Positions 48,114 through 49,504 of a DNA stretch of 64,000 nt are shown here, one piece after another. A program made the translations under genes and the position numbers. The notes beneath the pieces are model-generated. The model did not search any database. It had not been told where the DNA came from and was given only the letters and a program-made list of their open reading frames with translations. Every line of letters begins with the position of its first letter. Position 1 is the stretch's first letter. Source of the DNA: Pseudosulfitobacter pseudonitzschiae (lineage in GTDB: Bacteria > Pseudomonadota > Alphaproteobacteria > Rhodobacterales > Rhodobacteraceae); NCBI RefSeq assembly GCF_900129395.1, contig NZ_FQVP01000001.1, positions 248,001 to 312,000 on the forward strand. Reading direction: 5' to 3'.

Positions 48114-48157
48114 GCCTAGCCTCTGGCTGTCCCAAGTCGCATGCGGGAAAAGAACGG

Positions 48158-48229
48158 GGCCGTTCGTGTCTGGCGCGGCGAACGGCGGGAATGAGCCTAG
48201 AGTCACCGATGCTGCGCGCTGCATGAAGG
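48158..48229. repeat. Dispersed intergenic repeat, copy B
   Basis: Second copy of the element at 28851-28921, in the same orientation: GGCCGTTCGT, then GCGGCGAACGGCGGG at 48175-48189, TGAGCC, and ATGCTGCGCG at 48209-48218 followed by TGCATGAA. It lies between the DegT gene and the MerR cassette. Confidence 0.7.
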
Positions 48230-48250
48230 TCCGCCTCCACGACTTCTGTA

Positions 48251-48281
48251 TTGACTTAGAGTTACTCTAAGTCGTTATCGA
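48251..48281 (+). promoter_or_regulatory. MerR-type promoter and operator
   Basis: TTGACT (48251-48256) and TATCGA (48276-48281) are spaced by 19 bases, the stretched spacing typical of MerR-controlled promoters. Inside lies a perfect 10-bp inverted repeat, GACTTAGAGT (48253-48262) and ACTCTAAGTC (48264-48273), with a single central T. It drives the MerR gene and the gene after it. Confidence 0.8.
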
Positions 48282-48305
48282 CGGTTTAGAGGAGCAAACG
48301 CGACG

Positions 48306-48671
48306 ATGAGAATTGCAGAGGCTGCGGAGGCGTGTGGACTATCCGCACATACGATCAGGTTCTACGAGAAATCAGGAATGCTACCTGAGATAGTGCGCGG
48401 CGCAGATGGGCATCGTCACTTCACTCGGCGGGATGTTGAATGGCTAACCTTGCTTTATTGGCTTCGCGAAACGGGAATGCCGCTGAAGCAGATGCGCCGT
48501 TTCACAGAGCTTGCGAAGGCGGGCGATGCCGGAATCGCTGAAAGGCGGCAAATCCTTGCAAACCATTCCGATACGCTGAAGGCCAAGCGCGCCGTGATTG
48601 AAAAATGCGAAAGCGTTCTGGCAATCAAAGTCGCCAGTTATGGCCCTGTGGAAGACGAGGATACTTCATGA
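48306..48671 (+). CDS. MerR-family transcriptional regulator
   Basis: A 121-residue MerR protein. The helix-turn-helix is RIAEAAEACGLSAHTIRFYE (residues 2-21), followed by the wing GADGHRHFTRRDVEWL and a dimerisation helix from about 80 to 110. There is one Cys (C100) near the start of the tail and no metal-binding Cys cluster, so it belongs with the organic-ligand or stress-type MerR proteins (AdhR/YhdM-like). GAGGAG precedes the ATG. It controls its own promoter and the overlapping binding-protein-like gene. Confidence 0.9.
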   Translation: MRIAEAAEACGLSAHTIRFYEKSGMLPEIVRGADGHRHFTRRDVEWLTLLYWLRETGMPLKQMRRFTELAKAGDAGIAERRQILANHSDTLKAKRAVIEKCESVLAIKVASYGPVEDEDTS

Positions 48672-49378
48672 AATTCGCCTATTTGATCGAACCCCCTTTC
48701 AATTATATCGACACCAACGGCGACGTGACGGGCTGCGACGTTGAATTAGCGCGGCATGTATTCCAAGAACTGGGGATTTCCGATTTCGAGCCGGTCGAGA
48801 CTGAATTTGCTGAACTCTTGCCCGGTTTGGTCGATGGTCGCTGGCGGATGACCACCGGACTGTTCGGAACGGATGAACGACGACAGTCTGCGCAATTCAC
48901 CCGACCGATCTGGGCGCTACCGGACGGGCTGCTTGTGGGTGATGGCAATCCGATGGGTTTGACCGGCTACAGATCACTTGCGAGCAGCAGAGATGCTCGA
49001 CTGGCCGTGATCCGTGACCAGTTTCAGCACCGTTCTGCCGTGGAGTTCGGCGTGAGTGATCAGCAGATAGTAGTGTTCGAAACATACACAGAAGCTGCCA
49101 AGGCTGTGCGCGATGGCGCAGTAGACGCATATGCCAGTGTCGGCAGGGCGCACAGTGGATTCATTGAACAGCATGCGGATTGGCAATTGGATCTGGTTCT
49201 GGTGTCGGCAGACGAGAAACCGCCAGCATTCGGGTCATTTGCGGTCAGTTGGAACGACACCGGTTTGCTCAATGATGTCGATGCTGTCCTGTCAGAATTT
49301 CTAGGATCGGATGCCCACAGACAAATGGTTGCCGCATTTGGTTTCTCGAATGCCGAAGTGGATTTGGTGACCATCTGA
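48668..49378 (+). CDS. Family 3 solute-binding-protein fold without signal peptide
   Basis: A 236-residue protein that reads as a whole type II periplasmic-binding domain: FAYLIEPPFNYID.NGDVTG at the start, CDVELARHVFQELG, LLPGLVDGRWRMTTGLFGTDERR near 44-66, and a second lobe with YASVGRAHSGFI and a closing FGSFAVSW. It begins at the first residue of strand 1 with no leader, so it should stay in the cytosol. Its ATG overlaps the MerR stop (ATGA), meaning translational coupling. It may bind the MerR inducer or act as an enzyme-like domain, as cyclohexadienyl dehydratase does in this fold. Codon use is less GC-rich than the neighbours. Confidence 0.82.
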   Translation: MKFAYLIEPPFNYIDTNGDVTGCDVELARHVFQELGISDFEPVETEFAELLPGLVDGRWRMTTGLFGTDERRQSAQFTRPIWALPDGLLVGDGNPMGLTGYRSLASSRDARLAVIRDQFQHRSAVEFGVSDQQIVVFETYTEAAKAVRDGAVDAYASVGRAHSGFIEQHADWQLDLVLVSADEKPPAFGSFAVSWNDTGLLNDVDAVLSEFLGSDAHRQMVAAFGFSNAEVDLVTI

Positions 49379-49389
49379 TGTCTGTGAAG

Positions 49390-49466
49390 CGGACATTCTC
49401 TGCTCGCCTGTCAACGGCAGCTCCGTCCGCTCACCGGACCTTGGCGCATCCCGTTCCGAATGTCCG
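49390..49466. repeat. Repeat remnant with 9-bp inverted ends
   Basis: CGGACATTC (49390-49398) and GAATGTCCG (49458-49466) form a perfect 9-bp inverted repeat enclosing 59 bases with AACGGCAGCTCCG. This is like intergenic repeats I associate with Rhodobacterales genomes. It closes the right side of the MerR cassette. Confidence 0.5.
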
Positions 49467-49504
49467 GTGTTGGATCGGACATGCCTGGCATGCGACACCA
49501 GCCA

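What the first reader, a model, noticed from the sequence alone, without database searches (positions are those of the whole stretch)
48251..49378. MerR regulator coupled to a cytosolic binding-protein-fold protein
A MerR gene with a textbook 19-bp-spaced promoter and perfect 10-bp operator is translationally coupled (ATGA) to a full solute-binding-protein domain that lacks any signal peptide and has no transporter genes nearby. This could be a two-part ligand-sensing module in which the binding-protein fold captures or processes the inducer, or a small detoxification enzyme in that fold. Codon use and flanking repeats suggest gain by transfer.
Basis: partly seen in the sequence, partly recalled or inferred. 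Interest (0 to 1): 0.72.

Follow-up and report, generated by a model that had tools for sequence, protein, structure and literature searches.

The report
Cytosolic binding-protein gene in stress-regulator cassette
A gene switch of the MerR type is locked to a small protein that looks like a nutrient-capturing transporter part but appears to stay inside the cell and stands where sister switches carry small enzymes, suggesting a new job for this protein fold.

Summary
The pair is real: MerR 48306-48671 and a full SBP_bac_3 protein 48668-49378 share ATGA, behind a 19-bp-spaced promoter with a perfect 10-bp-arm operator. It recurs: of 41 non-redundant family loci, 23 have the MerR directly upstream, 2 have MerR-SDR-SBP, 16 have the SBP without MerR. 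By sequence the SBP is cytosolic: 0 of 48 members pass a strict hydrophobic-start test (1 at a looser cut) against 31 and 41 of 41 distinct EhuB-like relatives. Its nearest solved structure is the ectoine binder EhuB, but it is not EhuB, and it lacks the general acid of cyclohexadienyl dehydratase. Related MerRs at 35 of 35 scanned places stand before SBP (6), SDR then SBP (2), SDR (7), aldo/keto reductase (8), CMD protein (11) or none of these (1). The SBP thus fills an enzyme slot, and nearness to MerR is not special to it. With solo copies, this favours a stress-induced effector (enzyme or ligand sink) over a two-part sensor. The pair is absent from 5 of 5 same-genus genomes and has foreign GC3. 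Ligand, inducer and activity are unknown.

The parts
48251..48256 (+). -35 element TTGACT
   Evidence: Sequence. TTGAC(C/T) followed, after one 19-nt spacer, by TA in 25 of 25 family MerR upstream regions.
48253..48273 (.). MerR operator GACTTAGAGT-T-ACTCTAAGTC, perfect 10-bp arms, overlapping the -35 and the spacer
   Evidence: Only exact match of the core in the own genome.
48276..48281 (+). -10 element TATCGA (weak), 19 nt after the -35
   Evidence: TA at this place in 25 of 25.
48306..48671 (+). MerR-family regulator, 121 aa, no separate C-terminal ligand domain found, conserved Cys101
48668..49378 (+). SBP_bac_3-fold protein, 236 aa, cytosolic by sequence, overlapping the MerR stop by ATGA
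   Evidence: model, mean pLDDT 95.1; EhuB best match.

Best explanation
A horizontally acquired, self-regulated stress cassette. The MerR dimer sits on the 19-bp-spaced promoter and holds it down; an inducer, probably a small reactive or toxic compound sensed by MerR itself, untwists the promoter and switches on both genes. The coupled product is a cytosolic effector built on the type-3 solute-binding fold. It closes its two lobes on a carboxylated, cationic or zwitterionic small molecule and disposes of it, most likely by converting it and otherwise by trapping it. It takes the place that SDR, AKR and CMD proteins take beside related MerRs. Shown: gene pair, conserved promoter, no signal peptide by sequence, conserved residues, partners of related MerRs, absence from the genus. 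Inferred: repression and activation, inducer, ligand class, disposal, catalysis.
For: Pair and promoter conserved. At 35 of 35 MerR places of the family scan (E 1e-22 or better) the next gene was checked: SBP 6, SDR then SBP 2, SDR 7, AKR 8, CMD 11, none of these 1. Partner labels cluster on the MerR tree: 6 changes against a shuffled mean of 27.3 (53 rows). Solo SBPs keep the same invariant residues. Strict hydrophobic start in 0 of 48 members. Invariant E8, F11, F47, F66, R71 fall on EhuB positions 21, 24, 60, 80, 85 by the alignment (that these hold ectoine, and the numbering offset of one, are recalled). N12, W59, W82, Q118, S157, H162 and E183 are fixed or nearly so in the family and not in EhuB-like relatives. 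Gain.
Against: No catalytic motif is recognised and no activity is known. The lobe-1 residues look like those of a plain binder. The inducer is unknown and Cys101 may be structural. SDR, AKR and CMD proteins were named by profile or BLAST only; their substrates are unknown, so 'stress' and 'detoxification' are by analogy to NmlR. Solo SBPs lack the operator (0 of 16), so the SBP is not always under this control. On the SBP tree the paired state changes 7 times, so the link is gained or lost repeatedly. Paraburkholderia relatives do not keep N12, H162 or E183, so these are not needed for whatever the wider group does.
Confidence: 0.6

Rival explanations
1. Two-part sensor: the SBP captures the inducer in the cytosol and hands it to, or acts on, the short MerR that lacks its own ligand domain.
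For: 4-base overlap in 21 of 23 directly paired loci. The MerR is only 116-126 aa with no ligand domain found in the window's copy.
Against: Related MerRs stand in the same way before SDR, AKR and CMD genes. 16 of 41 SBPs are without an adjacent MerR, 10 of those genomes without one above 58 bits. No MerR-SBP fusion in the 25 loci that hold both.
Confidence: 0.12
2. Ligand sink (a sub-reading of the effector, overlapping the best explanation): a trap made to high level on induction that binds and hides a toxic small molecule, as antibiotic-binding short forms of MerR-type regulators do.
For: EhuB binding-site positions are kept and no catalytic motif is seen. TipA regulators are called minimal autoregulated multidrug-resistance systems and AlbAS is said to sequester albicidin (starts of abstracts, PMC7762955 and PMC12531866).
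Against: Partners of related MerRs are of enzyme families. Family-specific fixed polar residues (N12, Q118, H162, E183) go beyond what EhuB-like relatives keep.
Confidence: 0.3
3. Misassigned ordinary transport binding protein: a periplasmic EhuB-type protein with a missed signal peptide.
For: EhuB is the best match in the PDB and in NCBIfam.
Against: 26 of 48 members have an in-frame stop within 12 codons upstream; 0 of 48 pass the strict hydrophobic-start test, 1 of 48 the looser one. No widely shared transporter neighbour. Score below the EhuB cut-off.
Confidence: 0.03

Closest known systems
EhuB, ectoine/hydroxyectoine-binding protein (PDB 2q88/2q89)
   Same: Fold (Foldseek E 1.0e-20, TM 0.82); invariant residues at EhuB positions 21, 24, 60, 80, 85 (roles recalled).
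   Different: No signal peptide, no ehuACD genes beside it, 25% identity in the structural alignment, below the TIGR02995 cut-off, other lobe-2 residues (Q118, H162, E183).
Cyclohexadienyl dehydratase (enzyme in the same fold)
   Same: A type-3 binding-protein fold; precedent that the fold became an enzyme (PMC7683729, passages).
   Different: The general acid Glu173 falls on an invariant Ala161 here (alignment; register by chain offset and recall).
NmlR/AdhR MerR regulators with adhC/estD
   Same: Closest NCBIfam regulator model. A MerR that drives small formaldehyde-detoxifying enzymes (PMC9909328, passages).
   Different: Below the NmlR cut-off (78.4 of 175 bits). A binding-protein-fold partner instead of adhC. 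Conserved Cys at 101 in the dimer helix (helix placing is by eye).
TipA/TipAS and AlbA/AlbAS
   Same: Minimal self-regulated MerR-type system with a cytosolic small-molecule-binding protein (starts of abstracts).
   Different: There the binding domain belongs to the regulator itself (recalled for TipA; AlbAS is called an isoform of AlbA); here it is a separate gene of another fold.

Membership tests
MerR family regulator | MerR HTH domain plus operator in a 19-20 bp spacer | tested here: met
   MerR_1 62.2 bits, cut-off 21.6; 19 nt. The 19-20 bp rule is from PMC9909328, passages.
NmlR equivalog (NF041849) | Score at or above the curated cut-off | tested here: not met
   78.4 of 175 bits.
TipA/BmrR type MerR | C-terminal ligand-binding domain in the same chain | tested here: not met
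   121 aa; only MerR-type domains found.
SBP_bac_3 fold | Profile match and two-lobe structure | tested here: met
   68.8 bits, cut-off 26.4; predicted model and Foldseek.
EhuB (TIGR02995) | Score at or above the cut-off | tested here: not met
   138.1 of 190.9 bits.
EhuB (TIGR02995) | Signal peptide and ABC transporter partner genes | tested here: not met
   (by eye). Contrast: an annotated EhuB with ehuC, ehuD, ehuA, doeA and doeB.
EhuB (TIGR02995) | Binds ectoine | not testable with these tools
   Needs a binding assay.
Cyclohexadienyl dehydratase | General acid Glu173 | tested here: not met
   Ala161 in 44 of 44 core rows; the register rests partly on recall.

The most novel reading that the evidence does not exclude
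A new family of cytosolic enzymes built on the type-3 solute-binding fold (an origin separate from cyclohexadienyl dehydratase). It acts on an ectoine- or betaine-like zwitterion, or on a reactive adduct of one, is carried between alphaproteobacteria as a MerR-controlled cassette, and is interchangeable with SDR, AKR and CMD effectors of one regulator lineage.
Probability: 0.35. Interest if true: 0.75.

Novelty: new variant of a known kind. Interest (0 to 1): 0.5.

Why it matters
Binding proteins that have left the transport system are unusual, and those turned into enzymes are used to study how catalysis begins. A conserved cytosolic family with a fixed set of residues and a built-in reporter (its own MerR promoter) can be assayed directly. 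The set of related cassettes, similar regulators with four interchangeable effectors, also gives a way to find the inducer.

Tried and rejected
Flanking repeats as traces of insertion: none found. Second operator sites in the own genome: only the pair's own site matches the core exactly; one other site has two mismatches, while the reversed control pattern gave nine. Operator in front of solo SBPs: 0 of 16 (for 15; L049 was sliced at the wrong place there and redone; its neighbours are misplaced for the same reason and not used). Viral carriers: 142 pattern matches, none a relative. Defence: PADLOC gives one match for MerR (mad1, residues 1-48, which I take as the shared HTH) and none for the SBP. 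Promoter scan with 16-18 nt spacing: none, as expected for a 19-nt spacer.

Limits. Family, class and phylum scans are samples. In the class and phylum scans, cut at E 1e-30, the family was found in 2 of 385 and 4 of 398 genomes, own included, at 309 bits or more, and the other hits scored 157 or less; Paraburkholderia relatives were not scored with that profile. Rows under 40% identity (L050-L066) were left out of the pair counts. Of 48 rows in the start test, L011 and L086 have no start codon in register and could not be scored; L086 is out of frame at its start. Two of 43 EhuB-like rows were duplicates and are dropped from the counts. The test is hydropathy at any start, not a trained predictor. 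The CMD label of L142, used in the tree, was first assumed and later confirmed; the AKR label of L076 rests on Pfam. First residues of MerR rows were set to M. The SBP tree has long branches and its deep order is not used.

Full report
Observation. The window holds a 121-aa MerR gene (48306-48671) and a 236-aa SBP_bac_3 gene (48668-49378) that share ATGA. Upstream lies TTGACT, 19 nt, TATCGA, with a perfect inverted repeat of 10-bp arms at 48253-48273. A repeat of that quality is not beyond chance in 64 kb (2 in the window; 0-2 in each of 20 random sequences). Position and conservation carry the weight: TTGA(C/G), 20 nt (last -35 base plus the 19-nt spacer) and TA lies within 110 bases upstream of 25 of 25 family MerRs and in 11 of 3968 control windows of the same loci; the stricter operator pattern, written after seeing the sites, in 24 of 25 and 0 of 3968. 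The exact operator core occurs nowhere else in the own genome, so the pair may be its only target.

Conservation of the pair. A genome-contig scan gave 35 loci. A scan of 394 genomes of the same family gave 13 genomes, own included, with a hit of 47% identity or more; the next hits are at 34% or less (a 102-residue fragment at 54% is noted below). After dropping eight exact duplicates and rows under 40% identity, 41 loci remain. MerR lies directly upstream in 23: 21 with the 4-base overlap, L011 with -19 and no start codon in register, L020 with a 67-base gap. In 2 an SDR lies between MerR and SBP. In 16 no MerR is beside the SBP. Clustering of ORFs in the fetched flanks (up to 5 kb, often less) found no other widely shared partner: other clusters were antisense ORFs over the two genes or occurred in at most 8 of 41 loci. 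Two further members (L089, L094) and five plasmid relatives (L082-L086) showed no MerR in the fetched stretch.

Location of the protein. In 26 of 48 members an in-frame stop lies within 12 codons upstream of the conserved start. An 11-residue stretch of mean hydropathy 2.0 or more near any start is found in 0 of 48, and of 1.6 or more in 1 of 48; two of the 48 have no start codon in register and could not be scored. In 41 distinct EhuB-like relatives the counts are 0, 31 and 41. The family is therefore cytosolic as far as this test can say. Of four Paraburkholderia plasmid relatives fetched (38-40% identity), three have no hydrophobic start and one is out of frame at its start; in the two with a gene table they stand beside a GNAT gene, or beside allantoinase and MFS genes.

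What the protein is. The AlphaFold2 model has mean pLDDT 95.1 and best matches EhuB with ectoine. By the alignment the invariant E8, F11, F47, F66 and R71 fall on EhuB 21, 24, 60, 80 and 85. The offset of one between chain index and EhuB numbering, and that these residues hold ectoine, are recalled from the 2007 structure paper, which I did not read. The Asp that amino-acid binders use for the amino group (recalled) falls on invariant V158, and the general acid Glu173 of cyclohexadienyl dehydratase (PMC7683729, passages) on invariant A161; the register is by chain offset and recall. Fixed in 44 of 44 core rows are W59, W82, Q118, S157, H162 and E183 (N12 in 42). Among EhuB-like rows E183 is Glu in 6 of 43 and the others are not among the listed commonest residues. 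Three Paraburkholderia rows keep W59, W82, Q118 and S157 but not N12, H162 or E183. The ligand is therefore likely a carboxylate with cationic or ring character and not a plain amino acid; this is inference.

The regulator lineage. A scan of 394 family genomes with the MerR alignment gave 35 places in 31 genomes at E 1e-22 or better. All 35 were read. The gene after MerR is SBP in 6, SDR then SBP in 2, SDR in 7, aldo/keto reductase in 8, CMD-family protein in 11 and none of these in 1. Names rest on Pfam or NCBIfam for the members scanned (SDR: PRK07578, two members; AKR, CMD and SDR, seven members) and on BLAST to these for the rest. In the SDR cassettes the junction is the same 4-base overlap in most; AKR and CMD junctions vary, and starts there were picked mechanically. 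Five of the 16 SBP-solo genomes have a close family MerR elsewhere, each next to the SDR. Two genomes with the MerR-SBP pair also carry MerR-SDR and two also carry MerR-AKR. On a tree of 53 MerRs the partner labels need 6 changes against a shuffled mean of 27.3; near-copies help such clustering. Cys101 is in 23 of 23 SBP, 2 of 2 SDR-SBP, 10 of 10 SDR, 5 of 7 AKR and 5 of 10 CMD regulators. Thus related regulators precede interchangeable small effectors, three of which are enzyme families, and the SBP stands in that slot.

Which mechanism. Closeness to MerR is shared with the enzyme partners, so it does not argue for a MerR-SBP complex. Solo SBPs with the same invariant residues, ten of them in genomes whose best MerR scores below 58 bits with the family profile (several are draft MAGs, two are 99% complete, three bear strain titles), suggest that the protein works without this regulator. 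Against a tight functional bond, the paired state changes 7 times on the SBP tree. I therefore prefer a stress-induced effector: enzyme first, ligand sink second, co-sensor third. No catalytic activity or ligand is shown. 'Stress' is by analogy to NmlR, whose targets detoxify formaldehyde (PMC9909328, passages).

Gain. None of five same-genus genomes has the SBP at E 1e-20 (one is 89% complete). Between the same flanking genes, G1136 has only a few bases, G1135 about 215 bases with no ORF of its own over 42 aa, G1137 and G1138 different low-GC inserts of 887 and 677 bases. In G1134 only the aminotransferase side was in the stretch; next to it is a 314-aa ORF that reads by eye like an IS110-type transposase. 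GC3 is 0.54 and 0.57 for the pair against 0.74-0.83 for seven neighbours.

Literature. Searches for MerR with solute-binding protein and signal peptide (2 papers), binding proteins lacking a signal peptide (54 papers, 15 listed), the SDR model (1 paper) and MerR with these enzyme partners (0 papers) showed no description of this pair in the listings seen. Only listings were seen for these, and the library holds open-licence papers only.

Noticed in passing
window 48114-49504 (between the aminotransferase and the CreA-like gene, both named by eye): A variable-content site in this genus: nearly empty in one genome, short and without a clear gene in another, two different low-GC inserts, and a transposase-like ORF beside the aminotransferase in a fifth.
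   Followed up: partly
L134-L149, L152-L154, L180: Related MerR genes directly before aldo/keto reductase or CMD-family genes in genomes of the same family (L154: an SBP-bearing genome).
   Followed up: partly
L083 5246-6720; L016 3667-5065: SBP relatives directly after a GNAT acetyltransferase gene, on a Paraburkholderia plasmid (annotated) and in a Hyphomicrobiales MAG (read by eye from ORFs).
   Followed up: no
L082 1-7705 (Aminobacter plasmid pAA04): A solo SBP copy (63% identity) on a plasmid typed as conjugative, near annotated Hachiman HamA, Fic and TIR-domain genes.
   Followed up: no
G302:C1:3851276-3851569: A second, partial SBP copy (54% identity, residues 134-235) with one in-frame stop in a genome that also has the pair.
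   Followed up: no
L011 1495: The SBP frame has AGG where other members have the start codon and the MerR frame runs on further; may be an assembly error.
   Followed up: no
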